From positions 1 through 36,054 of the forward strand of contig JAFUBE010000634.1 in assembly GCA_017460365.1 (NCBI GenBank): 36,054 nucleotides of DNA. Reading direction: 5' to 3'. Source of the stretch: Eggerthellaceae bacterium (GTDB taxonomy: Bacteria > Actinomycetota > Coriobacteriia > Coriobacteriales > Eggerthellaceae). The translations under genes were made by a program, and so were the position numbers. Below are positions 1 through 27,250 of the stretch, piece after piece (positions within the stretch are counted from its first letter, which is position 1; each line of letters begins with the position of its first letter). The notes beneath the pieces were generated by a model, which saw only the letters and a program-made list of their open reading frames with translations, searched no databases and was not told where the DNA came from.

Positions 1-60
1 CCTGCGGTGGGCGCGGATGGCCTGCGGTGGGCGCGGATGGCCTGCGGTGGGCGCGGATGG
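1..60. repeat. Three tandem copies of a 20-bp unit at the window edge
   Basis: The unit CCTGCGGTGGGCGCGGATGG occurs three times in perfect succession from base 1 and may continue to the left of the window. It does not sit in a recognisable gene. It could be a minisatellite-like intergenic repeat or part of a terminal/attachment region; the sequence alone does not decide. Confidence 0.9.
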
Positions 61-67
61 CCCATTA

Positions 68-120
68 AAACAGGTGGTAGCGCTTAACTGGCAAGCGCTA
101 GTAGCTATCAATTCGATAGC
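68..120. repeat. Host-type interspersed repeat, copy 1 (two hairpins)
   Basis: Two perfect inverted repeats lie next to each other: TAGCGCTT (78-85) with AAGCGCTA (93-100), and GCTATC (104-109) with GATAGC (115-120). Elements built from AGCGCTT and GATAGC arms are common between genes in Comamonadaceae chromosomes (from memory of such genomes, not checked here). Copies 2 and 3 lie at 864-915 and 959-1014. Confidence 0.7.
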
Positions 121-410
121 GCATCCACACAACCGGCGGCAGAAAAAATGCCGGGCCCGACCTACGCCCGAATTTTCTCGCCACCAGAAAAATACAAGAC
201 CAAGGACCTCTCCAGAAAAACGGCCCGCTCGATCACCACCTGGTCGCCACAAACCACCCCGGGGGTACTCCCAGCCTCCCGGTCAATTTTGAATTTGGAC
301 CCCCGCCCAGGGGTGCACCTCCCGATCATTTTCAAATCCGGCGCGCACCATGGCAAGCCGCGTGCCCAGGAAAAGAGACGCCCATCTCACTTCGGCGTCC
401 GTTCGTCCCC

Positions 411-452
411 CGGCCATCAACCGCCCATCGCCGGCCATCAACCGCCCATCGC
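411..452. repeat. Two tandem copies of a 21-bp unit
   Basis: The block 411-431 is repeated exactly at 432-452 (core GGCCATCAACCGCCCATCGC). It lies in the gene-poor left end, with no supported open reading frame over it. Confidence 0.85.
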
Positions 453-521
453 CGACCCACAACCCTGCTGCGTCGCAACAAGGCACAGTCGAGTCTCGAT
501 CAACTTGATGACTTGAGAAAA

Positions 522-812
522 ATGTGTGACACGATCAACAACGAGATTGGGCGTTTGACGGCTTCTCTAAACTACCGCCATGTGGGCTCAACCACAGCGG
601 TTGCGGTGCTGATCTACGTGACCACCTGCATGTTCACTCACTATGGGGAGGACCATGGGGTCGATCGGACACCCCTGCTGTCCGTCCAACAGCGCGCTGT
701 GGGCGATTTTCTCGTTGGGCAAGGGGTTGGTAGCTCCGAGGGCGATGAGGCCCTTGTTGACCTCGCTAGGGCCAACGGCACTGTGGCCTATCTGGCGTCG
801 TTGCCCGGGTGA
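522..812 (+). CDS. Tentative small protein of unknown function in the gene-poor left end
   Basis: A 96-residue reading frame starts at ATG 522, with a weak purine stretch (GAGAAAA) just upstream. It has a moderately hydrophobic segment near residues 23-41 and an acidic C-terminal half. It is the only frame between 1 and 1170 whose composition looks even partly protein-like. It stands alone between repeat elements, has no recognisable family, and competes with open frames on the other strand. I would not be surprised if it is not a gene. Confidence 0.25.
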   Translation: MCDTINNEIGRLTASLNYRHVGSTTAVAVLIYVTTCMFTHYGEDHGVDRTPLLSVQQRAVGDFLVGQGVGSSEGDEALVDLARANGTVAYLASLPG

Positions 813-863
813 GCTACGCGGGCGGCCATTGGGGTGGTACTGCTTGGTGGTGGGCAAATCGGG

Positions 864-1014
864 TTTTTGCTATAAAACAGATAGCTGTCGGCACTTGTTG
901 GATAAGCGCTGGCCGTCTTTTACACCCTGGCGTTCAACGCTGCTCTTGGGGTCTTACCTTTGCTAAAAAACAGATAGCTACCAACGCTTTATGGATAAGC
1001 GCTAGACCCCGATT
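864..1014. repeat. Host-type interspersed repeat, copies 2 and 3 in direct orientation
   Basis: Positions 864-915 and 959-1014 share the framework TTTGCTA-AAAACAGATAGCT, then about 12 variable bases, then GGATAAGCGCT. This is the layout of repeats found near gene ends in Rhodoferax, Polaromonas and Acidovorax relatives (family knowledge from memory). The copies are diverged from each other. The stretch 1-1170 holds these repeats, the tandem units and one doubtful small frame, and nothing else I can support. Confidence 0.7.
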
Positions 1015-1170
1015 TCCCTGTATTTCTTGGAGTGGTCTGCTGGCGGTGCCGTAGAGACCTGTGCTCCGTGCACATCGGCACCCCTCTTTCTCATGCACAA
1101 AATCGCCCGCCCTTTTTCGTGGGCCAAATTGGGTGCAATTTTTCAAACGGACCCCTCTTTTGCTGGGCGC

Positions 1171-1638
1171 CTATGCGCTCTGTTTTTTCAGGAGCCCGGT
1201 TGGAGGGGGCCAATGTCCCTGGAGGTTTTCCCCGGCAGTTTTCACAGCAACACCTCGGCGCGCAGGCCCCGCCACCTGCACCAGTCCGGCCACCTCCAGC
1301 TCGCGCAGTATCTGCTGCACGCGGCGCTCGCTGATCCTGAGCATCCCGGCGATCTCGCGGGTGCCGAACCCCTTCTCGATGAACCGAGCCACGCTGCGCT
1401 TGCGCAGGTCGTCCTCATGGTCGCGCAGGCGGGGTACGGCCAGGTGCTCGCCCGGCCATGCCTCACACAGTCGCTTGGCGGCTGGCAGACCCAGCAGGCG
1501 GACCAGCAGGTGGCCTTCCTCGGCCACGATGGGCACGTAGAGGTTGCTGCCGTCACCGAACCAGGCCACGAGACGCAGTGTCGCGCTGAAGCCGATCACG
1601 GCGCTGATGTCATCGAGGGTGGTGTTTCGCAGTTCCAT
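1171..1638 (-). CDS. Mor-like transcription activator
   Basis: This 155-residue protein follows the layout of the Mor activator family of Mu-like phages. Residues 10-36 contain the IGF...GDGSNLYVP strand-and-turn (Mor proteins have G..hYhP here). Residues 44-69 carry the LLGLPAAKRL...VP repeat of the dimerisation domain, and residues 86-113 form a C-terminal helix-turn-helix (GTREIAGML-ISERRVQQIL). Mor-type proteins bind as dimers and recruit sigma70 RNA polymerase to middle or late promoters. It is the last gene of the leftward operon. I infer that it may switch on the tail operon. The start ATG is preceded by GGAAAGACCCCC. The gene ends with TAG; the frame stays open beyond it only through non-coding repeat DNA. 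Confidence 0.75.
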   Translation of the reverse strand: MELRNTTLDDISAVIGFSATLRLVAWFGDGSNLYVPIVAEEGHLLVRLLGLPAAKRLCEAWPGEHLAVPRLRDHEDDLRKRSVARFIEKGFGTREIAGMLRISERRVQQILRELEVAGLVQVAGPARRGVAVKTAGENLQGHWPPPTGLLKKQSA

Positions 1639-1653
1639 GGGGGTCTTTCCGTT

Positions 1654-2124
1654 TCAGTCAAACCGTGTGAACGGGATGTTGTGGCCCGACAGCAAACCTT
1701 GCAGGTAATTGATGTGAGCCCGCATCACCTTGTACGGGTGCGAGGTGCCGTTCGGATGCCCTACTGGTGCCATTTGCACATTCAGATCGGCCTGACCGAG
1801 ATTGTTGAAGTGCTCAATCCAAACACGTTCATGGGCATTGCGTCGTTTCTGATCAAGCAGAATTGCCGAAGCTACTTCCTCCAAAAGACATGCTTTGATG
1901 TCCCATCCGGCCAGCACCATCTGTGCCATCCAAACCTGACACGGCCGGGCATTTTTAGGGGCGATGTTGTGGTGATGGGTGTAAAGCCTTTTCTCGATAC
2001 GAACGCTTGACCCCACGTACCTAATCTCACCTGACAACGGGTCTAGCAATCCGTAAACACCCGAGGTGTACGGAAAACTCGCTCTGATCACACAGTGCAA
2101 TTTGTCGTGTTCAAAAATCTGCAT
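1654..2124 (-). CDS. GIY-YIG family endonuclease
   Basis: The domain begins with SGVYGLLDP and continues with IRYVGSS, the GIY and YIG elements. A basic KRLYTHHH segment follows, with the expected Arg and His, and a later ERVWIEHF holds the candidate metal-binding Glu. This single-domain protein of 156 residues has no separate DNA-binding module, as in many phage homing-type or segregation-distorting nucleases. An in-frame TTG at 2139 would add five residues; ATG 2124 is chosen for lack of a better ribosome site. It sits between the primase/iteron region and the Mor-like gene and was probably inserted as a mobile cistron. Confidence 0.8.
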   Translation of the reverse strand: MQIFEHDKLHCVIRASFPYTSGVYGLLDPLSGEIRYVGSSVRIEKRLYTHHHNIAPKNARPCQVWMAQMVLAGWDIKACLLEEVASAILLDQKRRNAHERVWIEHFNNLGQADLNVQMAPVGHPNGTSHPYKVMRAHINYLQGLLSGHNIPFTRFD

Positions 2125-2161
2125 AAAACCAATCTGCAATTTGTCTACAAGTTTCTCCGTT

Positions 2162-2259
2162 AGTGACGCAAGTGACGCATTTAGGTGCTTTTTCCAAAAC
2201 TCTCTTTACGCATAGGTGGAAAAAGTCAAAAAAGGGCAAAATGCGTCACTTGCGTCACT
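2162..2259. repeat. Iteron-bearing long inverted repeat; candidate replication origin
   Basis: The 21-bp arm 2162-2182 is perfectly complementary to 2239-2259. Each arm holds two copies of GTGACGCA spaced 9 bp apart (2163-2170 and 2172-2179; reverse at 2242-2249 and 2251-2258). Inside lies a second stem, CTTTTTCCA (2188-2196) with TGGAAAAAG (2217-2225), around an AT-rich loop. The structure lies directly downstream of the primase-helicase gene. P4-type alpha proteins recognise direct repeats at their origin (known for P4), so an origin is the leading reading. A structured 3' end of the primase mRNA is the alternative. Confidence 0.6.
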
Positions 2260-2267
2260 CTGTAGGG

Positions 2268-4844
2268 CTAAAACAGGTCCGCTGAACCCTTTATGCGTAA
2301 CCCAGACCTCAAGCGCACGCCGCCTGACCCCCGGATTGGCGGAAATCTCGTGTCCAACCGACGCGATAGAGCGGTGCTACTTCGGATGTAATTGAGCAAT
2401 CCGCGACCGCGAGCGAACATTTCCCACGAGTCCCACAGCTCTTTTGACGACACCGTGGCCGAAGGATCAAGGTCGCAGCACTCATCCAGCCACTCGGCCA
2501 AGAGGTCCATCTGCGACCGATAGGCGTCGCGGGCCGCGAGAACGCGCTTGGGCGGCACGAGGCCGTCCTTCTGATACCGCAGGGCTGCCTTGACGATCAG
2601 CGCAAGGATGCCGGCCATTTCCAGGGCGAGTTTTTCCTTCCGTTTTCCATCCTTGGGCACGTTCGGGTCGTTCTCAAAGTTGCGCTCGAACGGCAGCATG
2701 CCCATGCGGCGCCAGATGCCGTTGTCGTTGCCCTTGATGATCGGCTTGTGGTTCGTCGGCATGTAGACCACCCATGTCGGGGTCATCTCGACGCTGTGCT
2801 TGGCATGGATGCCCCGGGCAGTGATGGTGTCGCCCCCGGTCATGCTCTTGACCATACCCTCACGCAGCTCGCCGTTTTCATCCGGCTCATTGACATAGAC
2901 GAAACGAGCCCCCCGCAATCGAACAAGGTCCTCTCGCGGGCCACCCCCGCCCCCCTTATTACCATCTGCCACAAACGAAGCGGCATCGGCCGAGCGGGCG
3001 TAGCTGCCGAACGCCTGGCGCACGGCGTTGAAGATGGTGCTCTTGCCGTTGGCCCCGTTGCCGAAGGCGATGAACATGATGTCCTCGATGGGGGTGCCCA
3101 TGAGCGCGTACCCGAAGGTGCGCATCACGTACTCCACCATGTCCTCGTCGCCCGAGAACACCTCGGAGATGGTGCGCTCAAACACCGGCGCCTTGGCCCG
3201 AGGGTCGAAGTCGCAGGCCGCCACCAAGGTGATGCGCAGGTCTGGGTCCGGGGGCAGCAGCGCGCCCGTGCGCAAGTCCACCACGCCGTTGCGCACGCCC
3301 AGGTAGTGGCTGTGCTTGTCCAGCTCGGCAGCCGGCACGGCGACGCGCGGATCGCTGGACGCCAGCTTGACCATGTTGCTCACCATCCTGGCCTGCTGGC
3401 TCAGGGCGCAGAACTGGAAGAACTCGGCGCGTTCCTCGTGTTCCTCGACCTCGTTGACCAGGGCGCGGATGGTCTCTTTCGCCAGATGCTCGATTTCCAC
3501 GTCCACCGCGCGGCGCCAGTAGACGCCGGTCCAGATGAACCACGTTCCGACCTCGGGCACGAACATCAGGCCGTCGCCGTAGCGGTCCAGCATGCGCTCG
3601 GCGTTGCCGAACTCGGTCAAGGGCCGCTTGGCCTGCACCGTGGCCGCCCGTGGTCCCACCAGCAGGGCGCGCGCCTGCGTGATGGGCATGTTGGTCTTGG
3701 TCAGGGCCTTGTAGCGCGCCTGGAAGGCGCCAATGATCTCCGTGCGCACCAGCGGGTCGTCAGGGATCAGCAGCTTCAGCTTCTCCAGCACCTCCTTTCC
3801 GCCCAACTTCAGGCTGTCGGTCTGCGACTGGATCAGTTCCTTGGCTTCGTCCAGCGCGGCGCGGCGCCCTTCGTGGTCCTTCTCGCGCTTGGCCTGCCCG
3901 CAGATTTTCAGCAACCAGCGCAGCGTGGTGGGCGCACCGCTGCCCCCGCCGAACGAGCGCCACTTGTAGTCGTACTGCTTGGGGTCGTCCTTGCTGGAGC
4001 GTGCTCCGTACTCCTTCCACAGCGCCAGCGCGTCGGACTCATGCTCGGTGCCTGCGAACTCGTGGTGCAGGGACATGCCGACGTGTGCCCAGTGGTCGTA
4101 GGAGTCGCCGTCGTTCTCCAGGTGCGACATCCAGCGCTCAACCTCGGCGAAGGACATGCCCACACGGGCCACCAAGCTCATCAGGTCATCGGCGTCGCTG
4201 GAGCTGCGCATGGCAGGCGACTCGGCCGAGCCCACCACCGTCACACCGGGGGTGGTGCGCACCAGGCGGCTCACCTCGGCCAGCAGCGCAGCGACATGCT
4301 TCTCGGTCACGACAGGCAGGTCAGAGGCGCGCAGCGACTCCAGCCCTCCCATCAGGTCCACCCACTGGTAGTCGCGGCCGGTGTCCGGGTGCTCGTGGTA
4401 GGCTACGAACTGCTGGCCCAGGCCCAGGATTTCCACCTGCTGGTGGTTGTCCTTGCCGGACGGCTTGGTGGGGTCCGTGGGGTCGAAGAACTGCACCGAG
4501 GCGCCCTTGGCCCAGCCGGCGCTGTCTGCGCGGTAGGCCAGCAGGATGCGCGGCGCGGCCCCCACACGCTCGGCCCCATCACCGAGGTTGCGGCGGCACC
4601 AGGCGATGAGCGCAGGGCCGATGACCGGGTGGCTCACGTCGATGTCCACGCCGACGATGGGGTGCGCCCCCTGGCCGCAGAGCATACCCACCCCGTGGTC
4701 AGGGTAGCGGGTCAGGTCCTCCATGCCGAGGCGGGCCTTTTGCCAGCCAGAGATTGCTGGGCGTTTTTCGCCCTTGCGGATGGGGACGATCAGGTAGCCG
4801 TTGGCGAGCAGCGCCCGGCCATGGTTGCGAAAATGGTCGGTCAT
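2268..4844 (-). CDS. P4/D5-type primase-helicase
   Basis: An 858-residue fusion. Residues 5-170 form an N-terminal prim-pol-like domain (GYLIVPI near 16, then GVDID at 65-69 with two metal-binding Asp). Residues 220-315 resemble a PriCT-type connector (WAHVGMSLHH, then YKWRSFGG). From about 410 the D5 N-terminal region leads into a superfamily 3 helicase. Its Walker A is GNGANGKST at 595-603, its Walker B-like strand is ARFVYVNEP near 646, and a sensor region WVVYMPTNHKP follows near 691. It would unwind the phage origin and lay primers. The C-terminus reads SADLF then TAG, a tail shared with the phage exonuclease and ssDNA-binding protein. It overlaps the upstream gene by ATGA and is followed by the iteron repeat. 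Confidence 0.93.
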   Translation of the reverse strand: MTDHFRNHGRALLANGYLIVPIRKGEKRPAISGWQKARLGMEDLTRYPDHGVGMLCGQGAHPIVGVDIDVSHPVIGPALIAWCRRNLGDGAERVGAAPRILLAYRADSAGWAKGASVQFFDPTDPTKPSGKDNHQQVEILGLGQQFVAYHEHPDTGRDYQWVDLMGGLESLRASDLPVVTEKHVAALLAEVSRLVRTTPGVTVVGSAESPAMRSSSDADDLMSLVARVGMSFAEVERWMSHLENDGDSYDHWAHVGMSLHHEFAGTEHESDALALWKEYGARSSKDDPKQYDYKWRSFGGGSGAPTTLRWLLKICGQAKREKDHEGRRAALDEAKELIQSQTDSLKLGGKEVLEKLKLLIPDDPLVRTEIIGAFQARYKALTKTNMPITQARALLVGPRAATVQAKRPLTEFGNAERMLDRYGDGLMFVPEVGTWFIWTGVYWRRAVDVEIEHLAKETIRALVNEVEEHEERAEFFQFCALSQQARMVSNMVKLASSDPRVAVPAAELDKHSHYLGVRNGVVDLRTGALLPPDPDLRITLVAACDFDPRAKAPVFERTISEVFSGDEDMVEYVMRTFGYALMGTPIEDIMFIAFGNGANGKSTIFNAVRQAFGSYARSADAASFVADGNKGGGGGPREDLVRLRGARFVYVNEPDENGELREGMVKSMTGGDTITARGIHAKHSVEMTPTWVVYMPTNHKPIIKGNDNGIWRRMGMLPFERNFENDPNVPKDGKRKEKLALEMAGILALIVKAALRYQKDGLVPPKRVLAARDAYRSQMDLLAEWLDECCDLDPSATVSSKELWDSWEMFARGRGLLNYIRSSTALSRRLDTRFPPIRGSGGVRLRSGLRIKGSADLF

Positions 4845-5095
4845 CCTTGGGGGCTTTCGGCTTTCTTCTGCTTGCTCTGCTGGCGCAAGGCGATCTCACG
4901 AGCAAGCGCTGCGGTCATGGCGCCCAGTTGTTTTACAGTGTGTTTTGGCAGTACAACCAGCTTCGTTTCTTTGGGCGTCCCGGTCTGGAACGCACTGAGC
5001 ATCCCCACGAAAGCCTCAGCCATGTTCGGGTCGATTGGTGCAAGAGTGGTTCGCCCATCGACCCTGATGAAGATTGCGACCTGTTCGATGTTCAT
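4841..5095 (-). CDS. Conserved-looking small protein of unknown function
   Basis: This 84-residue protein sits between a hypothetical gene and the primase with 4-base overlaps on both sides, so it is translationally coupled to the primase. The first half is strand-rich (VAIFIRVDG, then KLVVLPKHTVKQL). The second half is a helix ending in a Lys/Gln-rich tail. I do not recognise the family. Its position suggests an accessory role to the primase, by inference only. Confidence 0.75.
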   Translation of the reverse strand: MNIEQVAIFIRVDGRTTLAPIDPNMAEAFVGMLSAFQTGTPKETKLVVLPKHTVKQLGAMTAALAREIALRQQSKQKKAESPQG

Positions 5096-5406
5096 GCCGC
5101 ACCGCCCTTCAGCTTGGAGACGGTTTCACGCGCCTTCGTCCAGCGCTGGCCCGCGCGCACGTAGGCGTCGTGCATCTTTTCCAGCTTGCGCTCGGCCTCG
5201 GCAATGGCCTCATCGCGCGTGGCGAACAGGCCCCCCTGGTGCAGGAGCGACGGTTTGTCGCAGTTGAAGTATCCCTTGATGGAGCCAGGATAGACACCGC
5301 AGACAGACAACTGCTTCACGTTCAGCGAAGCGGTGACGTACCAGGCGGTACAGGGGAATTTGGTAGGAGAGAACAAGGCTGGCGACCTTTCTGCAAGGCG
5401 CCGCAT
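5092..5406 (-). CDS. Small protein of unknown function upstream of the primase
   Basis: With the ATG at 5406 this is a 104-residue protein. It has a mixed N-terminal half (TAWYVTASLNVKQ, then GVYPGSIKGYF) and a charged C-terminal helix (TRDEAIAEAERKLEKM). An upstream ATG at 5442 would add twelve residues, but it directly follows the U-tract of a terminator-like hairpin (5447-5470), so the later start is preferred. It ends with a 4-base overlap onto the next gene. A promoter at 5516-5544 seems to serve it and the genes after it. No family recognised. Confidence 0.6.
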   Translation of the reverse strand: MRRLAERSPALFSPTKFPCTAWYVTASLNVKQLSVCGVYPGSIKGYFNCDKPSLLHQGGLFATRDEAIAEAERKLEKMHDAYVRAGQRWTKARETVSKLKGGAA

Positions 5407-5446
5407 GGTGGAGACCTGACGGAGCGCCAGCCTGTACCCCATCCGC

Positions 5447-5470
5447 AAAAATGGGGGTGTCAGGCCCCCA
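5447..5470 (-). terminator. Intrinsic terminator or attenuator (leftward)
   Basis: On the leftward strand TGGGGG (5470-5465) pairs with CCCCCA (5457-5452) around a 7-base loop, followed by a run of T (5451-5447). This is a normal rho-independent shape. It lies between a candidate promoter (5516-5544) and the next gene start, so it may limit read-through to the primase genes. Confidence 0.55.
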
Positions 5471-5515
5471 CCGTGCGGCTCTGCGGGTGACGGGGAATTC
5501 TGGCTGGCGGCGTGC

Positions 5516-5544
5516 AGTATATCGCGTTTGCGCAAAAACACTAA
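5516..5544 (-). promoter_or_regulatory. Leftward sigma70-like promoter with operator palindrome in the spacer
   Basis: On the minus strand the -35 candidate is TTAGTG (5544-5539), the spacer is 17 bp, and the -10 is TATACT (5521-5516). The spacer holds the perfect palindrome TTTGCGCAAA (5527-5536). The same palindrome core lies at the same place in the promoter at 6448-6476. The -35 overlaps the last codons of the upstream gene. Its likely role is to boost or control transcription of the primase gene group. Confidence 0.5.
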
Positions 5545-5936
5545 ACGTTTTGCGACACTCGACACTTCAGGATGCTGGTGTACACCGGGTCGATGAACTT
5601 CGCGCCCGTGTCGGCCCCGTGCCACCAGAGGTCACCGTCCATCTGCGGGATGCAGCCGCACAGCACGCTGCCGTCGGTCAGCATGATGTCCACCGTAGTG
5701 CCGAGACCGAAACCGCCGGGTTCTACCCAACCCTCGGCCGCCTCCCGCATCAACCACCCCCGCCATGCTGCCTCGATCTGCCGGACGCCGTACTGGCCGT
5801 TCGCTTCGCGCCAGAACAGGGCCTCCCGGCTGTTCGGATCACCCTCTTCCGGGTGCGACCAGCCTCGCGCCTTCAGCCCCTGGTAGTGGGCCCAGCAGGC
5901 GTCTTCGAACTGGGGGCGGGTGTCGGTGTTGGTCAT
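5541..5936 (-). CDS. Phage protein of unknown function, Trp/Gly-rich
   Basis: This 131-residue protein starts at ATG 5936, which overlaps the upstream stop as ATGA; an earlier in-frame start at 5951 is less likely. It begins with a helical segment (FEDACWAHYQGLKARGW), then REALFWREANGQYGVRQIEAAWRGWL, then a small strand-rich C-terminal part with LCGCIPQMDGDLWWHG. Similar Trp-rich proteins that count whole-codon helices are common in Burkholderiales prophages, without known function. It ends with TAG inside the -35 element of the next promoter. Confidence 0.75.
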   Translation of the reverse strand: MTNTDTRPQFEDACWAHYQGLKARGWSHPEEGDPNSREALFWREANGQYGVRQIEAAWRGWLMREAAEGWVEPGGFGLGTTVDIMLTDGSVLCGCIPQMDGDLWWHGADTGAKFIDPVYTSILKCRVSQNV

Positions 5937-6202
5937 GGCGCAACCTCGCACTCAGCGCACATCGAGCAGATGACCTCCAGCGTCAGCACCTGCGTGCCGT
6001 ACTTCTCGTGCATGACCACCGAGGCATCGGCGATCCGCTTGGCGAGGTCAGCGCGGCACGAGCGGCGGCTGCAGATCGACAACTGGTAGAGGTACAGACG
6101 CGACGTGCCGGCGAGCCCCGCGAATTCGTCGCGCTTGTCGTCGGTCTCCAACTGGCGCAGGACGGCCAGCAGGGGTGTCTTCGGGGTGTTCTTGCGGGCC
6201 AT
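5933..6202 (-). CDS. YdaS/Cro-like helix-turn-helix regulator
   Basis: An 89-residue protein starting at ATG 6202, which overlaps the preceding TAA by one base (TAATG). The stretch DEFAGLAGTSRLYLYQL, then SCRADLAKRIADAS, matches the YdaS-like helix-turn-helix layout (residues about 26-60): a short helix, a TS-x-x-YL recognition start, then a helix with LAKRI. Such proteins act as Cro-type repressors or activators in prophages. The nearby TTGCGC palindromes at 5527-5536 and 6458-6467 are reasonable targets, by inference. A GAAAGACCC leader precedes the start. Confidence 0.65.
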   Translation of the reverse strand: MARKNTPKTPLLAVLRQLETDDKRDEFAGLAGTSRLYLYQLSICSRRSCRADLAKRIADASVVMHEKYGTQVLTLEVICSMCAECEVAP

Positions 6203-6441
6203 TAGGAAGGGTCTTTCTGTGTTTGTGCACGATGGTTCCACTTCGCGCGGACGGCCGCCTTTTGGTCTTCGGTGACGTGGCCCGGCCAGTTGGACACGAC
6301 AAAGCGCACACCGCAGGGGTTACAGCAGACCGAGAAGACGTCCACTGGGTCAGGGCCGAAACCACCGCCAGGGTTGTGGCCCAGCCGTTCGGAAGGCGCA
6401 CCCCCGCAGAAGGGGCAGGGTGATAAAGTTATTTCGCACAT
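6202..6441 (-). CDS. Lar-like zinc-ribbon protein
   Basis: This 79-residue protein starts at ATG 6441. It carries CPFCGG (Cys9, Cys12) and a second knuckle at residues 39-43 (VCCNPCG), and ends with the AKWNHRA signature typical of the Lar family (WN-x-RA). The known Lar of the Rac prophage relieves restriction by type I systems; transfer of that role here is inference. The ATG lies seven bases after the -10 element TAGAAT (6453-6448), so the transcript should begin at the A of the start codon (leaderless). An upstream TTG at 6447 is the only alternative start. Confidence 0.72.
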   Translation of the reverse strand: MCEITLSPCPFCGGAPSERLGHNPGGGFGPDPVDVFSVCCNPCGVRFVVSNWPGHVTEDQKAAVRAKWNHRAQTQKDPS

Positions 6442-6447
6442 GCGCAA

Positions 6448-6476
6448 ATTCTAGCTTATTGCGCAATCGCTCACAA
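6448..6476 (-). promoter_or_regulatory. Leftward promoter giving a leaderless transcript, with operator palindrome in the spacer
   Basis: On the minus strand TTGTGA (6476-6471), a 17-bp spacer and TAGAAT (6453-6448) form a near-ideal sigma70 promoter. The spacer contains ATTGCGCAAT (6458-6467), a perfect 10-bp palindrome, and TGCGCAAA follows at 6441-6448. A bound repressor would block polymerase directly. Confidence 0.65.
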
Positions 6477-6566
6477 CCACCCATCGGCCAACGCGAAAAA
6501 ACTGTTGCGTACACCTAAACTCTGCGATAGTCTTACGTCACCCCAATGAGCCCCACGGAGGTGTGC

Positions 6567-6794
6567 TCATACCAACCCTTTCCCAACAGGCCGCTTACCC
6601 ACCGGCCCCACGGGGATCACCGCACCGCTGCGCAGCGACACGCATTGGGCCACCTGCACATGGGCGACCCGCAACTCCACCCTGGACGAGTACCCCTAGC
6701 CGTAGGCCGCGCAGATGCTCGCGCTGTCCATGTGCACCTTCTCGACCACGGCGCCTTGGGCCGTGAACGCGATGAAAACGAAGACCCAGTTCAC
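6567..6794 (-). pseudogene. Small exported protein gene interrupted by an in-frame amber codon
   Basis: Starting at GTG 6794, which overlaps the upstream stop as GTGA, the frame encodes a hydrophobic N-terminus (NWVFVFIAFTAQGAVVEKV) and stops at TAG 6698-6696 after 32 residues. The same frame continues with protein-like sequence (GYSSRVELRVAHVQVAQCV) to TGA at 6569-6567, giving 75 codons in all. With the amber read through, the architecture equals that of the protein at 10227-10409: a hydrophobic start, a VVE motif and two cysteines 20-23 residues apart. TAG ends several other genes here, so general recoding is unlikely. A nonsense mutation or local read-through are the options. Confidence 0.55.
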
Positions 6795-7180
6795 GCAACA
6801 CCTCCAGTCCAGGGGTTCACCCCACCAACAAACACCGACTTTACCGGGTAGTCCATCGGCAGATCAACGGTACGCTCACCGTCCGAGAACGGACTGTACT
6901 TCGCCACGTACCCACGAGAGGCGCGAGGCTTCGGCGCGGGCCGAGGCGCGTTCTGCCCGGGGCCCAGCACCCACACGGCGGCGGGTGCCGACTTCTCCGT
7001 CGAGCGCTCCCATGCGGTGATGTGCGCCAGGTCATCCTTGTGCAAGGCCCACAGCGCGGCACGAGAACCGCCGTCGGCGATGTCACTACGCCGCTCGATC
7101 TCCGCGCACGAGCCCCGGCCGATGCGCTCCAAGGTGCTGACGACGGCTTTTCGCACGGCGCCTTTTGCCGCGATGGTCAT
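6791..7180 (-). CDS. Small winged-helix protein with an I(C/T)AW core
   Basis: A 129-residue protein starting at ATG 7180, which overlaps the upstream stop as ATGA. Residues 8-50 form a helix-turn-helix-like unit (VVSTLERIGRGSCAEIERRS, then RAALWALHKDD). It is followed by HITAWERS at 53-60 and the strand VWVLGPGQNAPRP, then a C-terminal extension without known motifs. The order matches the proteins at 9704-10042 and 18449-18793 (RICAWND and HICAWDKD at equal positions). I infer a phage-specific DNA-binding family; the targets are unknown. Confidence 0.65.
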   Translation of the reverse strand: MTIAAKGAVRKAVVSTLERIGRGSCAEIERRSDIADGGSRAALWALHKDDLAHITAWERSTEKSAPAAVWVLGPGQNAPRPAPKPRASRGYVAKYSPFSDGERTVDLPMDYPVKSVFVGGVNPWTGGVA

Positions 7181-8952
7181 TGGGCGCCCCCTTGCTTGCG
7201 GGCTGCGCGAGTCACCCAGCGGGGCTCCAGCGCGCTTCCGTTTAGTGCGTTCCACTGGCGATAGAACCCTTCGACTTGGTGTTTCAGCAGTGGGTTGTTG
7301 TCGTTGTCCGCTTGGGTTTCTGCTTCACCCAAAAGCACCCAGAATGAGTGCAGCACGTTGTCGCGCTCGGAAAACCACCGCGCCGCATCCTCCAGCACGC
7401 TGTCTGCCTTGTCCTTCTCCGCGCAGCGCGCAAGAATCATCGCCTGCAGTTCAGGGCTTCCAAAGCTGGACGGCTGGCTGTCTGCCGGGGGTGCTGGCTG
7501 GGGTGCGGCGGCGACAACGGCGCGTTGAACTGCCTTGCCGATGGCTGCTGCCCAATTCGTAGTGCCTCTGGTGCAACGACCTGACAGCGCTTCATCAGCC
7601 TGCATCACAACCTTCATCAGCGCGAGACTGTCCAGCGGCCCCGTTACTGCTCCAGCGGCTGGTGCCGTCACGCTGTCTGCCGGGGCACGGGATGCGCTCA
7701 GTGGCTTGAGGTATCCAGCGCGTGATTCGTGGAGCTTTTGCAGCGCCGCGTTGGGGTCGTCTGCATTTGCTGCGTTCCACCCAGCGGAAACACCGGCGAG
7801 GTATTGGCTATCGGCCATGGCGTCAGCAACCTCAGCTGGCACTGGCTGGCTGTTTGCCTGGGCGGCTGGGGTGGGCGCTGCGGCGAGTTGCTCCAAGACA
7901 GCCAACGTCGCCATTGCATCGATTGCACTCTCCTTTTTCGGCCAGCCATCATCGAAGAAATACTGGCTATTGATGCGGTGGTCGGCCATGGCGTTGAGGT
8001 ATCGGCGCGCTTTCTCCACCGGATCCGCTGTGGAGCCGTCCGAGAACTTTATCGTCTCGACAGGCCCCGCAACTGCGCCAGCGGCTGGTGCCGCCAACTC
8101 GCCAGAATCCTCCGCGACGATCACCGCGCCGCGCAGCACGCGCCTCGCAGCGCGCATGCGGTCATCGGCAGGCTCGCCGATCAACTCGATGGCCTGCCGG
8201 ATGGCTCGCACCGCCGCACTAAGCGTCGTGAAGTCGGTGGTGGCTGGTGCCGCCTGTGCCGTGGGGGCGGCCAGGGTAGCGTTGTGGGCCATCACGATTT
8301 CAGTGACCGCACCGGATTCGACATTCCGCCCAAGGTACGAGACAAGGCCACGGCCTTCCTTGTTCACGATGCTCCAGCCCTCGTAGCCATCTTTGCCGCC
8401 AGAGCCGTACCAGCGCTCAATCCACGCCCCTGCGGCTGGTGCCGCCTGTGCCGTGGCGGTTTCTGGGTAGGGCCAGTCCTTCAAATGCTCGACGGCTTCG
8501 GCCACCGTCTTGTCAATCGCACTGCCGGGTTGGTAGCCAATCTTCTCCTTTGCTCTCAAGAACAGGCCGATCATCGTGCTCAGTAGAGCGTGCGTCTTGG
8601 TGTTCGTCGCCCCGGCTGGTGCTTGCCCATTTGCCAATCGCAACACCGCTTCCACGATTTTTTCGGCGCCGATGGTGTCCCATGCCGTGGATTGCAGCCC
8701 TATGGCGTCTTCAACCTGTTCGACCGTGATGCGGGAGGCTGGTGCTTGCCCATGGTATGCGCGAATTGCCGCGCGCCACCCGTAAAGCACATAAGCGGCA
8801 GAGCCGCAGTCGTCGCTTGCGCTGCCAGAGCTGTCGCGTGCTTTGCGTGCTTTGCGTACTATGGCTCGCAGTTCATCTGGCGTGGGCTCAGGCAGCTCCG
8901 CATAGGCCCCGCCCTTTGGTGCTGCTGGTCTGTCGTGTTCTTCATTCGTCAT
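7177..8952 (-). CDS. Large modular protein with Ala/Pro-rich linkers
   Basis: A 591-residue protein; ATG 8952 is chosen for the GGAGAG ribosome site eight bases upstream. Short globular segments (for example RKARKARDSSG..., WIERWYGSGGKDGYEGWSIVNKE and SQYFFDDGWPKKESAIDAMA) are separated by Ala/Pro/Gln linkers of the type AAPAAGAVTGP. The linkers are encoded by six near-identical DNA copies of GGCTGGTGC, listed separately. This beads-on-a-string build recalls the variable Ea22-like accessory proteins of phage early regions, whose function is not settled. The C-terminal part (ARWFSERDNVLHSFWVLLGE) is predicted helical. I assign no activity. Confidence 0.75.
   Translation of the reverse strand: MTNEEHDRPAAPKGGAYAELPEPTPDELRAIVRKARKARDSSGSASDDCGSAAYVLYGWRAAIRAYHGQAPASRITVEQVEDAIGLQSTAWDTIGAEKIVEAVLRLANGQAPAGATNTKTHALLSTMIGLFLRAKEKIGYQPGSAIDKTVAEAVEHLKDWPYPETATAQAAPAAGAWIERWYGSGGKDGYEGWSIVNKEGRGLVSYLGRNVESGAVTEIVMAHNATLAAPTAQAAPATTDFTTLSAAVRAIRQAIELIGEPADDRMRAARRVLRGAVIVAEDSGELAAPAAGAVAGPVETIKFSDGSTADPVEKARRYLNAMADHRINSQYFFDDGWPKKESAIDAMATLAVLEQLAAAPTPAAQANSQPVPAEVADAMADSQYLAGVSAGWNAANADDPNAALQKLHESRAGYLKPLSASRAPADSVTAPAAGAVTGPLDSLALMKVVMQADEALSGRCTRGTTNWAAAIGKAVQRAVVAAAPQPAPPADSQPSSFGSPELQAMILARCAEKDKADSVLEDAARWFSERDNVLHSFWVLLGEAETQADNDNNPLLKHQVEGFYRQWNALNGSALEPRWVTRAARKQGGAQ
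7657..8753. repeat. Six dispersed copies of a GGCTGGTGC linker repeat
   Basis: GGCTGGTGCCG occurs at 7657, 8083, 8242 and 8434. GGCTGGTGCTTGCCCAT occurs at 8614 and 8737. All lie in the linkers of the modular protein gene and mark its module borders. They are good candidates for recombination points that shuffle modules between phages. Confidence 0.8.
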
Positions 8953-8954
8953 GA

Positions 8955-9224
8955 TCAATCTCTCCATTTTGTAAACGGCCGACCGGCTTTTTCCCAAGCG
9001 CAATCGACCGCAATTTCCAGTAACTCGTCGGCGGTGATCCCCTCCTGACGAGCGGCGATGCGGACAGCGCTCATGGCGTTCTGCTCGCAGTACGGTGAGC
9101 CAGGGCGGTGGGGATACCAGTAACCCCCGCAGTTGCAGACGCGGTGCCCGGTCTCACGCAGGTGCTTCGTGAACAGGTCGAACGACTTGCGTCGGGTTCG
9201 ACATTCAGGGCAGCGTAGGATCAA
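8955..9224 (-). CDS. Zinc-ribbon protein of unknown function
   Basis: The first Cys pair (CPEC) sits at the very N-terminus, and a second set (CNCGGYWYPHRPGSPYC) follows. A helical C-terminal part (ITADELLEIAVDCAWEKAG) completes an 89-residue protein. TTG 9224 overlaps the upstream stop as TTGA and lies about eight bases after GGGGAC; GTG 9230 is the alternative start. The open frame extends further upstream, but there it only shadows the next gene. The Cys/His pattern suggests one or two zinc sites and nucleic-acid or protein binding. Confidence 0.6.
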   Translation of the reverse strand: MILRCPECRTRRKSFDLFTKHLRETGHRVCNCGGYWYPHRPGSPYCEQNAMSAVRIAARQEGITADELLEIAVDCAWEKAGRPFTKWRD

Positions 9225-9424
9225 CGCCACACGTCCCCGTTTGCCCGAACAAACGCGACCGCGAGGTCTCCATCCCAACGTTTTTTGCGCATCAGACAGG
9301 TCAACAACCGAATGCGGACCTCTGTCACCCGTTCGATGGTGGCGACAACGGCGCGCACCGCAGCAGGTGGGTGTTCGGTCACACGGCGACACGCAGCCAA
9401 GCGTTCGTGCGTCGTGCTTTTCAT
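9221..9424 (-). CDS. Small helical protein of unknown function
   Basis: A 67-residue, Arg-rich, helical protein (RAVVATIERVTEVRIRLLTCL, abridged by nature to one long helix), ending in GDLAVAFVRANGDVWR. Its ATG at 9424 overlaps the upstream TGA (ATGA) and its stop overlaps the next start. No family recognised. Confidence 0.6.
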   Translation of the reverse strand: MKSTTHERLAACRRVTEHPPAAVRAVVATIERVTEVRIRLLTCLMRKKRWDGDLAVAFVRANGDVWR

Positions 9425-9543
9425 TTGCAACCCCCGCAGAAGAACATCCGGTTGCGCCACACCCCGCCCGTCCGGTTGCGGTCGGTGAGGCACTTCACAC
9501 AGAACGCCTTGGCGTAGTAGGTGCTGGTGGGTGGGATAGTCAT
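9421..9543 (-). CDS. 40-residue zinc-ribbon protein
   Basis: This short gene has ATGA overlaps on both sides. It encodes two Cys pairs, CVKC (15 and 18) and CGGC (36 and 39), with basic residues between them, the minimal zinc-ribbon layout. The overlap pattern and the perfect Cys spacing support it as a real gene despite its size. It could bind nucleic acid or a host protein; nothing more can be said. Confidence 0.65.
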   Translation of the reverse strand: MTIPPTSTYYAKAFCVKCLTDRNRTGGVWRNRMFFCGGCK

Positions 9544-9707
9544 GTGCCTTCCCCGTGAAGAAACTCGAAGTCACGCGCGTCCTTGAGTGCGGCCAACGCC
9601 TCCTTTGCCTCAGCGAACTCAGGGCTGCTTTTTCCGAAATCCCGCTTGGCCGACCGCTTTTCCACCTTGGCTTCACGAATGGCTTCATCAAATTCGTCCA
9701 TCGTCAT
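9540..9707 (-). CDS. Small charged helical protein
   Basis: A 55-residue protein, almost entirely helical and highly charged (DEFDEAIREAKVEKRSAKRD, then FAEAKEALAALKDARDFEFL). ATG 9707 overlaps the upstream stop; a second ATG two codons later is also possible. The heptad-like spacing suggests a short coiled coil. Function unknown. Confidence 0.65.
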   Translation of the reverse strand: MTMDEFDEAIREAKVEKRSAKRDFGKSSPEFAEAKEALAALKDARDFEFLHGEGT

Positions 9708-10042
9708 AACGTGTCCTCCAGGCTGACCATCGAACTCTCGGCCCGACGCCGCGCACGCATGCGCGCCATCGTCTCGGCGGCTGTCCACCGGCGCCCGGGG
9801 CGCGGCAGGTCGGGTTCGGTGCCCCACTGGAACACCGGCACGATGCGGCGACCCCGCACGTCGTCGTTCCATGCGCAGATGCGCACCACACCCAGCTCGC
9901 GCATCTGCTTGACCCAGCGGGCCACCGACTCTTTTGCCAGGCCGGAGACCAGCACCAGGTCGTCGTAGGTGTGCCCCTTGGCCTTCAGCGCGGTCTGCAT
10001 GCGCAGGGTGATCTTGGCGTTGTTGCGGCGGGGGGCGGTCAT
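9704..10042 (-). CDS. Winged-helix DNA-binding protein with an I(C/T)AW core
   Basis: This 112-residue protein contains a helix-turn-helix (TYDDLVLVSGLAKESVARWV, about residues 25-44). RICAWNDDVRGRRIVPV follows as a beta-hairpin wing, then QWGTEPDLPRPG and a basic C-terminal tail. The same order appears in the proteins at 6791-7180 and 18449-18793. The family resembles phage proteins that read DNA through a winged helix, as in IclR- or MarR-like folds. The target is unknown. It overlaps the lipoprotein gene upstream (ATGA). Confidence 0.7.
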   Translation of the reverse strand: MTAPRRNNAKITLRMQTALKAKGHTYDDLVLVSGLAKESVARWVKQMRELGVVRICAWNDDVRGRRIVPVFQWGTEPDLPRPGRRWTAAETMARMRARRRAESSMVSLEDTL

Positions 10043-10230
10043 GGGTAGGCCCTCGCAGTGCAGCCGAACGTGAGCTTGCTGCCAAACGTTCCGTGTTCGA
10101 ACACCGTGGTCAGCTCGCCGTTGTTCTTCTTGCAGAACTCGTTGATAGCTTCCATGGCTTTGATCTTGTCCTCAGAGCAGCCGGCCAGTGCCAGGGCGAG
10201 CAGCAGGATAGTGGTGGTGCGGGCGGTCAT
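10039..10230 (-). CDS. Small lipoprotein
   Basis: A 63-residue precursor with a classical lipoprotein signal: a basic start, a hydrophobic core (ILLLALALAGC) and lipobox LAGC with the modified Cys at 18. The mature part is about 45 residues and has two further cysteines (EFCKKN and TFGCTA) that could form one disulfide. Lipoproteins expressed early by phages often block entry of related phages at the envelope; that role is inference here. It is flanked by other accessory genes with 4-base overlaps. Confidence 0.8.
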   Translation of the reverse strand: MTARTTTILLLALALAGCSEDKIKAMEAINEFCKKNNGELTTVFEHGTFGSKLTFGCTARAYP

Positions 10231-10409
10231 GGGCGCAACACCTTGGCTTCGACGCAGCGCGTCCCCTTCCGCAGAGATTCATTTGAAAACGGGATGGATT
10301 TGCGCACATGCTCGCACTGCTCAACGGTGGGGAATCGTTCGACCACGGTCGCCTCATGTCCGTAGTACCCGCCAACGGTGATCAGGAGCCAGAGAGTTAC
10401 CGTCTCCAT
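10227..10409 (-). CDS. Small exported or membrane-anchored protein with a Cys pair
   Basis: A 60-residue protein starting at ATG 10409 (TGATG overlap). It has a hydrophobic N-terminus (VTLWLLITVGGYYG), then VVERFPTVEQCEHVRKS and RCVEAK. Cys32 and Cys52 may pair if the chain is exported. The amber-interrupted gene at 6567-6794 has the same layout. Together with the lipoprotein next to it, this suggests an envelope-directed function. No family name recognised. Confidence 0.65.
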   Translation of the reverse strand: METVTLWLLITVGGYYGHEATVVERFPTVEQCEHVRKSIPFSNESLRKGTRCVEAKVLRP

Positions 10410-10591
10410 CACACACCCTCCTTCTTCAAGAACGCCGTCAGCCGCTTGATGCGGTCGCCGTTGTACTCGGCGATGCGGCGGGCGTAGTCCGCGCTGGACT
10501 GAGCCGCCAGGAGTTGGCGCTGGGCTTCTTCCAGCTCGCGCTGGGCCAGTTCCTTGGGGGAGGGTTTGCGGAAAGGGTTTAGGAATTTCAT
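10409..10591 (-). CDS. Small coiled-coil protein
   Basis: This 60-residue protein has a basic start (KFLNPFRKPSPKEL) and then one long charged helix (RELEEAQRQLLAAQSSADYA) with heptad spacing. Its ATG is preceded by the recurring leader CTGAAAGCACCCC. Proteins of this shape are common in Burkholderiales phages, with unknown role. Confidence 0.65.
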   Translation of the reverse strand: MKFLNPFRKPSPKELAQRELEEAQRQLLAAQSSADYARRIAEYNGDRIKRLTAFLKKEGV

Positions 10592-10637
10592 GGGGTGCTT
10601 TCAGTTGGAACGGAGAGGTTTGTCTTTGGCGGCACGA

Positions 10638-10862
10638 TCAGGCGAGCAGGTGTGCATAGTCTTTGAACAGGCGCGATTCCCAGTCGGTTTCGCCAAGGCA
10701 TGCGCGCTGGATGAAGGCCCAGCTCGGCACGTCCTCGCGGTCGATTTCGCGGCACCAGATAGGCATACCGAGCACGCGGGTGACGCGCTCAAGCACCTGA
10801 AAACCGGTGCAGTCGCTGCGCGTCCACCGGCGCACGCGGTGGGTGGTGGCGATGATCTTCAC
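10638..10862 (-). CDS. Small protein of unknown function (GTG start)
   Basis: With GTG 10862, two bases after the upstream TGA, this gives a 74-residue protein beginning KIIATTHRVRRWTRSDCTGF. It contains GMPIWCREIDREDVPSWAFI and ends in a helical stretch (WESRLFKDYAHLLA). Upstream extension of the frame only shadows the next gene. Its compact size and Trp/Arg content do not point to a family. A 46-base gap with nothing recognisable separates it from the next gene. Confidence 0.6.
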   Translation of the reverse strand: MKIIATTHRVRRWTRSDCTGFQVLERVTRVLGMPIWCREIDREDVPSWAFIQRACLGETDWESRLFKDYAHLLA

Positions 10863-26454: not shown

Positions 26455-27035
26455 GTCAGTGCTTTCAGCGCAGTCTCGTACTGCGCCTTGCGCTCGGCCA
26501 GGTGCATGAGCGCTGGCCCGTTCACCCGCCGCGTCACCTCGGTCATGTCGCCCTTGTCGGCCGGGTCGTTGCACTTGGCGTCGTGCCAGTACCAGGCTGC
26601 CGTCAGCGCGGCGTGCTTTGGCGTGGTGACCAGCGCGGGGTTGCCCACGTAGTCGTACCCCAGCGACTCGCCGGCGCGTTCGTAGTTTTTGCGCCAAGTT
26701 AGCTGCACCAAACCTCTGCCATGCATGCCTTTGTAGAGCAGTTCGCTCAGGCCCTTGGGGTTGCGTGCGTATGGCTCGGCGTCAGCCATGCTCTTGAACG
26801 CGCGGGGGTAGATGCGCGCCAACCGTGAGGCGTCCTTGTAGTACAGGCCCTCTTCCACCGCCGACAGGTGCGCCGACTCCACCGCCACGGTGGCGAGGAA
26901 CGCCGCCTGGCGCTGCAGAGAGCAGATGTCGAATCGACCCATGGCATCCAGCAGGGGCTGGTGGTAGGTCTGCGCGTTTCCGTACGGCGCGCTGGTGGCC
27001 GCCGCGAGTTGTTCAACCGTGAAGGTCATGGTCAT
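26451..27035 (-). CDS. GH19-type endolysin (chitinase-like muramidase)
   Basis: A 194-residue, single-domain enzyme. FLATVAVESAHLSAVEEGLY holds the catalytic Glu53 and a second acidic pair (61-62). GMHGRGLVQLTWRKNYERAG is the GH19 signature. The rest (HAALTAAWYWHDAKCND, VTRRVNGPALMHLAER) follows the family. There is no signal peptide, so it would need a holin, which is not identified here. ATG 27035 overlaps the upstream stop; ATG 27029 has better spacing to GAGG and may be the true start. Confidence 0.88.
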   Translation of the reverse strand: MTMTFTVEQLAAATSAPYGNAQTYHQPLLDAMGRFDICSLQRQAAFLATVAVESAHLSAVEEGLYYKDASRLARIYPRAFKSMADAEPYARNPKGLSELLYKGMHGRGLVQLTWRKNYERAGESLGYDYVGNPALVTTPKHAALTAAWYWHDAKCNDPADKGDMTEVTRRVNGPALMHLAERKAQYETALKALT

Positions 27036-27250
27036 ACCTCGATAATCTCAATGGTCAGGTCCGGCGCGGGGCCTTCGATTGCGCCGTTGCGGAAGAACAC
27101 GCGGTCACCCACGGTGGCCTCCCCGCGTGCAGTAGCCATACCACCCTGCTCCTGGATGGTGGCAACGCCGTCGGCATAGGCGATCACCTCACCCACGCGC
27201 AACGGGTAGGTGGGGATCAGCTTCTGGAACCGGCTAAACAGGTTCGACAT
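27032..27250 (-). CDS. Small tail-associated protein
   Basis: A 72-residue, strand-rich protein (LIPTYPLRVGEVIAYADGVA, then GEATVGDRVFFRNGAIEGPA). It overlaps the hub gene by 17 bases and the endolysin by four. The VGEVIA-x-A-DG pattern resembles small baseplate or tail-tip beta-barrel proteins (OB-like), similar to the small protein after the hub in other siphoviruses. Likely part of the tail tip (inference). Confidence 0.65.
   Translation of the reverse strand: MSNLFSRFQKLIPTYPLRVGEVIAYADGVATIQEQGGMATARGEATVGDRVFFRNGAIEGPAPDLTIEIIEV

What the first reader, a model, noticed from the sequence alone, without database searches (positions are those of the whole stretch)
2162..2259. Long nested hairpin with four GTGACGCA iterons beside the primase-helicase gene
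A perfect 21-bp inverted repeat, each arm with two GTGACGCA units 9 bp apart, encloses a second 9-bp stem and an AT-rich loop, directly after the stop codon of a P4-type primase-helicase. P4 alpha protein binds iterons in two origin parts (ori and crr). Here both parts would be folded into one palindrome. This may be a compact self-recognised origin of a kind not described for siphoviruses.
Basis: partly seen in the sequence, partly recalled or inferred. Interest (0 to 1): 0.72.

Follow-up and report, generated by a model that had tools for sequence, protein, structure and literature searches.

The report
Phage replication origin beside primase gene
The hairpin is very probably this phage's replication start site, built from four copies of a short word that the neighbouring primase-helicase appears to read with the tip of its last domain; the same plan recurs beside this gene in many phages and in archaeal plasmids, with different words.

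Summary
At 2162-2259 a perfect 21-bp inverted repeat, each arm two AGTGACGCA units 9 bp apart, encloses a 56-nt AT-rich loop with a 9-bp inner stem, 8 nt after the primase-helicase stop codon. The origin interpretation is well supported by comparison; the claim that the kind is undescribed is not. The same 2+2 tandem-iteron palindrome lies at the primase 3' end in 71 of 120 relative clusters (strict detector) and almost nowhere else within 4 kb. Iteron letters differ widely while the architecture stays. Closest precedents: the 100-bp stem-loop (21-bp stem, 58-nt loop) required for pRN1 plasmid replication, which its authors already linked to Bordetella phage BIP-1, and PICI/SaPI origins. New here: the stem, including that of pRN1-family plasmids, is made of 9-bp iterons; and iteron letters covary with residues 838-839 in the wing of the primase's RFX-like C-terminal winged helix. 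Two prophage primases 98.5% identical differ mainly by one 5-residue wing block, and all four of their iterons differ at the same base. No experiment shows origin function in this phage. New member of a known kind, with a testable recognition code.

The parts
2162..2170 (+). iteron 1, AGTGACGCA (outer, left arm)
2171..2179 (+). iteron 2, AGTGACGCA (inner, left arm)
2183..2238 (.). 56-nt AT-rich loop, the likely melting region; in relatives the loop is 67% AT on average against 43% in the flanks, higher in 41 of 41
2188..2196 (.). left arm of inner 9-bp stem (CTTTTTCCA)
2217..2225 (.). right arm of inner 9-bp stem (TGGAAAAAG)
2242..2250 (-). iteron 3, AGTGACGCA on the minus strand (inner, right arm)
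2251..2259 (-). iteron 4, AGTGACGCA on the minus strand (outer, right arm)
2268..4844 (-). replication protein, 858 aa: Prim-Pol (aa 12-163), PriCT_2 (236-314), D5_N (415-563), SF3 helicase part (595-713), C-terminal winged helix; PHROG 1156
2271..2462 (-). codons of the C-terminal RFX-like winged helix (about aa 795-858), the likely iteron-binding domain
2328..2342 (-). codons of wing residues 835-839 (PPIRG), the block that covaries with iteron letters

Best explanation
The element is the phage's replication origin, recognised by the replication protein encoded beside it. Proposed steps: (1) copies of the Prim-Pol/SF3 helicase protein bind the four 9-bp iterons through the C-terminal RFX-like winged helix, with the wing (residues around 838-839) reading iteron bases 3-5; (2) the two oppositely oriented iteron pairs load two helicase rings facing each other across the AT-rich loop; (3) the SF3 motors melt the loop, possibly helped by cruciform extrusion; (4) the Prim-Pol domain or another phage enzyme primes and two forks leave. 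Shown by computation here: the anatomy, its recurrence at this gene, the turnover of iteron letters and their covariation with the wing. Inferred from homologues: binding, origin function, melting, two-ring loading and priming.
For: Position: with a strict detector 71 of 120 primase clusters (90% identity) have paired inverted tandem iterons at -300 to +900 of the primase stop, against 2 hits in about 2,900 other 250-bp bins and 1 of 360 shuffles; period 9 in 47 of 71. Of 7 proteobacterial clusters it missed, four are clear hits on relaxed inspection and one has the palindrome further away. Letters vary, architecture stays. Loop AT-rich in 41 of 41. Recognition: of about 7,600 residue x iteron-base pairs the strongest covariation is residue 839 x base 3: D with C 16/1/1/26, N with G/A, G/S with T; 34 of 37 agree in the set used and 11 of 13 in later loci, permutation p = 0.001. 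Natural swap: L364 and L050 primases are 98.5% identical, TSAKG/QLIRS in the wing, all four iterons AGTGGCGTT/AGTGACGTT; L092/L057 repeat this. L003, 30% identical in the helicase, has the same AGTGACGCA iterons and the same R-G at the wing. A prediction from the wing (KG, hence GTGGCG) found the displaced palindrome in L088/L074/L076 at +2.8 to +4.3 kb. Fold: RFX5 and RFX1 DNA-binding domains, Z 8.6 and 7.9; RFX1 reads the major groove with its wing (PMC4333399). Homologous function: pRN1 stem-loop required for replication (PMC4234260, PMC3869888); PICI origin works in E. coli (PMC6092414); SaPI Rep uses its C-terminal domain on iterons downstream of its gene and the D5_N helicase Cch2 binds such repeats with its C-terminal domain (PMC7581432).
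Against: No replication or binding experiment was found for this phage or its close relatives. For pRN1, gel shifts and footprints with the replication protein showed no specific binding (PMC4234260). GC skew gives no signal. Tree-aware pair tests agree in direction (about 5 to 0) but have too few supported pairs to reach 0.05. The partial-distance scan also shows raised correlation across the helicase domain, not the wing alone, and only 4 of the 30 top covarying pairs are in the 810-850 region (1.5 expected). Two of 13 later loci break the rule, and L109, L351 and L352 show no clear palindrome. Some registers were set by hand.
Confidence: 0.85

Rival explanations
1. Autoregulatory operator: the primase protein or a phage repressor binds the palindrome to control the primase or the downstream GIY-YIG gene; it is not an origin.
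For: It lies between two same-strand genes, 38 nt before an ATG of the GIY-YIG frame; covariation suggests contact at most, not replication.
Against: In relatives the next gene varies: endonuclease, recombinase, resolvase, methylase, while the palindrome stays with the primase; it follows rather than precedes the primase gene; no sigma-70-like promoter found in 1600-2800; homologous pRN1 and PICI elements are needed for replication. An origin may also regulate.
Confidence: 0.07
2. RNA hairpin: a transcription terminator, attenuator or mRNA stabiliser at the 3' end of the primase transcript.
For: Very stable predicted RNA fold, z -6.8; located just after a stop codon.
Against: No T tract and no terminator-like site; no credible Rfam match, only sub-threshold models. 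An RNA stem needs pairing only, yet the two direct copies also change in step (all four iterons), the arm keeps a period near 9, and the letters track a DNA-binding wing. In L003 the palindrome lies inside the coding sequence, in L088/L074 kilobases away.
Confidence: 0.04
3. Chance, a mobile miniature element, or an assembly artefact.
For: Contig-end sequence in a fragmented assembly; inverted repeats are common in mobile elements.
Against: Identical 98-bp element at the same place in three other assemblies; absent elsewhere in the assembly; conserved position with changing letters in relatives.
Confidence: 0.01

Closest known systems
pRN1 stem-loop origin (Berkner et al. 2014, PMC4234260; Joshua et al. 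2013, PMC3869888) and the stem-loop noted 3' of the BIP-1 phage replication gene
   Same: Similar domain order (Prim-Pol, SF3 helicase, C-terminal winged helix); about 100-bp element 3' of the gene; 21-bp stem with 58-nt loop against 21 and 56 here; sequence varies while structure stays. Measured here: pRN1, pHEN7, pRN2 and pDL10 stems all have their best internal period at 9 bp, e.g. TGTCCA twice 9 bp apart in pRN1 (combined p 2e-6 with four plasmids, 0.001 without pHEN7).
   Different: The authors state that pRN1 lacks the iteron structure and that the bound motif is not identified; here the stem is seen as tandem iterons. The stem-loop they drew for BIP-1 is placed at the gene end near 27,177; the iteron palindrome found here in the near-identical phage BPP-1 is about 0.5 kb further on, roughly 26,597-26,717. 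Archaeal plasmid against bacterial phage.
PICI / SaPI origins (PMC6092414; Ubeda et al. 2007 as cited in PMC7581432)
   Same: Immediately 3' of the rep gene; two iteron sets flanking an AT-rich region; initiator helicase thought to bind as two hexamers through its C-terminal domain.
   Different: A phage, not a satellite island; exactly two iterons per side fused into one near-perfect palindrome.
SCCmec Cch2 putative origin (PMC7581432)
   Same: D5_N/Primase_Cterm helicase; isolated C-terminal domain binds direct repeats downstream of the gene.
   Different: Three 5-nt repeats; its inverted repeats were dispensable for binding; primase is a separate protein.
P4 alpha protein with ori and crr
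   Same: Fused primase-helicase whose winged helix binds repeats at the origin (as described in PMC4234260).
   Different: TOPRIM primase; two separate cis elements (own knowledge).
RFX1/RFX5 DNA-binding domain
   Same: Best fold match of the C-terminal domain; wing-based reading in RFX1.
   Different: Eukaryotic transcription factor; fold similarity only, 9-14% identity.

Membership tests
pRN1-type stem-loop origin | replication protein with Prim-Pol, SF3 helicase and C-terminal winged helix | tested here: met
   Pfam Prim-Pol, PriCT_2, D5_N, DUF5906; AlphaFold winged helix, pLDDT 84
pRN1-type stem-loop origin | about 100-bp stem-loop just 3' of that gene | tested here: met
   98 bp, 21-bp stem, 56-nt loop, 8 nt after the stop
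pRN1-type stem-loop origin | structure conserved, letters not | tested here: met
   71 of 120 clusters, widely different letters
pRN1-type stem-loop origin | required in cis for replication | not testable with these tools
   needs a plasmid or phage assay
PICI/SaPI-type origin | two iteron sets flanking an AT-rich region, 3' of rep | tested here: met
PICI/SaPI-type origin | initiator C-terminal domain binds the iterons | tested here: inconclusive
   covariation and natural swap; no binding assay
PICI/SaPI-type origin | carried on a phage-inducible chromosomal island | tested here: not met
   window carries phage tail genes, DNA polymerase and helicase
P4 alpha/ori/crr system | TOPRIM-type primase fused to SF3 helicase | tested here: not met
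   primase half matches Prim-Pol and PriCT_2
P4 alpha/ori/crr system | two separate iteron-bearing cis elements | tested here: inconclusive
   one site in the window and in the held assembly, but about 13 kb of the phage is probably missing
intrinsic transcription terminator | G+C-rich stem with short loop followed by a T run | tested here: not met
   56-nt loop, no T run

The most novel reading that the evidence does not exclude
Prim-Pol/SF3 replicons from archaeal plasmids to bacterial phages share one origin plan (two 9-bp iterons, melting loop, two inverted iterons), and its specificity is read by an RFX-like wing: a change of up to five wing residues goes with the same base change in all four iterons, so closely related replicons diverge to separate origin specificities, perhaps to avoid cross-recognition by competing phages or satellites.
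Probability: 0.6. Interest if true: 0.75.

Novelty: new member of a known kind. Interest (0 to 1): 0.58.

Why it matters
The pRN1 work left open which DNA motif these replication proteins recognise and found no specific binding. The comparison gives a concrete motif, a domain, candidate residues and natural near-identical protein pairs with different predicted specificity, so the question can be settled with two purified domains and a few oligonucleotides. It also gives a simple way to locate likely origins in many uncharacterised phages and prophages.

Tried and rejected
GC skew: no turning point at the element in the window, BPP-1, phage 4316 or phi105. Exact-letter search for the iteron pair in viral contigs: only 5 contigs, one with the same palindrome (L003) and one with a large array (L004); letters are the wrong handle. 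Primase search with the single protein in viral contigs: no relative found; alignments were needed. Sequence search of solved structures with the C-terminal alignment: no significant match. Wider genome searches gave only distant helicases, many without a clear palindrome. Attempt to find one protein segment by partial distance correlation alone: a peak at 815-844 but a broad helicase signal too, so not decisive. Terminator and RNA-family readings. P4 membership. Foldseek alone gave no match below E 0.001; the RFX resemblance rests on Z 8.6/7.9, moderate for a small winged helix. One paper search failed for a too-short term.

Full report
What is there. The window holds, at 2162-2259, a perfect 21-bp inverted repeat whose arms are each AGTGACGCA-AGTGACGCA-TTT, enclosing a 56-nt AT-rich loop with a 9-bp inner stem. 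In the direction of transcription it starts 8 nt after the stop codon of an 858-aa Prim-Pol / PriCT_2 / D5_N / SF3 replication protein on the minus strand. Random sequences of the same dinucleotide make-up gave no perfect inverted repeat longer than 13 bp in 36 kb. On the other side lies a GIY-YIG reading frame.

Relatives. The closest named phages by primase are Bordetella BPP-1/BMP-1/BIP-1 (51%), Acinetobacter phage 4316 (46%) and Burkholderia BcepC6B. At or just beyond the primase 3' end BPP-1 has TTTGCCTCG twice and inverted twice, phage 4316 has AGTGACGTT twice and inverted twice, and phi105 has GTTACTTTT-type repeats in the same plan. Alignment-based scans of viral and genome contigs gave several hundred loci. 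A letter-blind detector (a 7-mer repeated at 8-12 bp and the same pair inverted within 230 bp) found the arrangement in 71 of 120 clusters near the primase stop, with 2 hits in roughly 2,900 other bins and 1 in 360 shuffles. Of 7 proteobacterial clusters it missed, 4 are clear on inspection with a relaxed score, one is degenerate, one has the element displaced by 2.8 kb and one shows none. The unit is 9 bp in most; some Firmicutes-type loci use 12 bp with three sites. The spacer is AT-rich against its flanks in 41 of 41.

Letters turn over. Units seen in register include AGTGACGCA, AGTGACGTT, AGTGGCGTT, TGCGACGTT, TGCGTCGTT, TGGGTCGTT, TGGAACGTT, TGCCTCGTT and TGTACCGTT. The four copies within an element mostly agree. 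Either the copies are homogenised by recombination or selection for one binding protein keeps them alike.

Who reads the letters. Mutual information between 844 primase columns and 9 iteron positions in 41 phages puts residue 839 x base 3 first (z 6.1). D839 goes with C, N839 with G or A, G/S839 with T; residue 838 follows base 5 in a context-dependent way (R or K with A, T or G; Q with C). Agreement is 34 of 37 in the set used to find the rule and 11 of 13 in loci examined later (permutation p 0.001); the later set includes hand-set registers. The tree-aware pair tests point one way (about 5 to 0) but are small. The cleanest case needs no statistics: L364 and L050 have primases 98.5% identical over 867 aa; the only clustered difference in the C-terminal domain is TSAKG against QLIRS at window positions 835-839, and all four iterons read AGTGGCGTT against AGTGACGTT. 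L092/L057 repeat it at 89.6% identity. The distant primase of L003 (30% identical in the helicase) has the window's own iteron letters and the same R-G at the wing, although there the palindrome lies inside the coding frame. Using the rule, K-G in the L088 family predicted GTGGCG repeats, and these were found as a palindrome 2.8-4.3 kb from the stop.

Structure. AlphaFold of the last 129 residues with 44 sequences gives pLDDT 84 and a winged helix; 838-839 sit at the end of the first wing strand. The best structural matches are RFX5 and RFX1 DNA-binding domains (Z 8.6, 7.9) and the C-terminal domain of African swine fever virus PrimPol (Z 7.3). RFX1 is the known case in which the wing, not the helix, reads the major groove (PMC4333399), which fits the location of the covarying residues. 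Fold similarity alone would not show this.

Known systems. Berkner et al. 2014 showed that a 100-bp stem-loop (21-bp stem, 58-nt loop) 3' of the pRN1 replication gene is necessary and, with the replication operon, sufficient for replication; that one stem mutation was tolerated only when symmetry was restored; and that BIP-1 has a stem-loop 3' of its replication gene. [quoted passage not shown] Re-reading the stems here: pRN1 has TGTCCA twice 9 bp apart, pHEN7 TGTCACNAC twice, pRN2 GGAC twice 9 bp apart; 9 is the best period in all four plasmids, pDL10 weakly. PICI origins have two iteron sets flanking an AT-rich region 3' of rep and work in E. coli; SaPI Rep and Cch2 use C-terminal domains on repeats downstream of their genes.

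Mechanism and certainty. Anatomy, recurrence, letter turnover and covariation are computed results. Binding by the C-terminal domain is strongly suggested. Origin function is inferred from homologous systems and position. Two-ring loading, melting of the loop and priming are inferred from established SF3 helicase knowledge. Whether the palindrome is extruded as a cruciform or matters only as two oppositely facing double iterons is open; palindromy follows automatically if both sides must bind one protein in mirror orientation with equal spacing, so the hairpin itself may be incidental.

Noticed in passing
window 1-10844; L190, L191, L192: The left 10 kb of this phage is 99.98-99.99% identical to contigs in a sheep-colon Clostridia MAG, a cattle-abomasum Aeriscardovia MAG and a Vreelandella rituensis assembly (two of the contigs are about 48.87 kb). 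This suggests a contaminant or mis-binned phage of about 48.9 kb, of which the window holds only about 36 kb.
   Followed up: partly
window 1-60: A 20-bp unit CCTGCGGTGGGCGCGGATGG is repeated three times in tandem at the contig end, possibly an assembly-end artefact.
   Followed up: no
window 1654-2139: GIY-YIG reading frame right after the element, with an 11-bp direct repeat TGCAATTTGTC at 2096 and 2135 around its start.
   Followed up: no
L003 9542-9648: The palindrome lies inside the primase reading frame, so the origin letters also encode the protein's C-terminal tail.
   Followed up: partly
L004 626-913: A short region carries 14 GTGACGCA copies in both orientations upstream of a nuclease-like gene.
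   Followed up: no
L039 and L359, about 60-330 nt after the primase stop: Iteron arrays with extra copies and arms in the opposite order to the other relatives.
   Followed up: partly
L163, L168, L260, L301, L303 and similar: Firmicutes-type relatives have 12-bp period repeats at both ends of a region of about 230 bp plus a central copy, a different layout of the same theme.
   Followed up: no
L205 5084-5183 (pRN1): The experimentally required pRN1 stem contains TGTCCA twice 9 bp apart, not remarked on in the passages read of the two papers that mapped it.
   Followed up: yes
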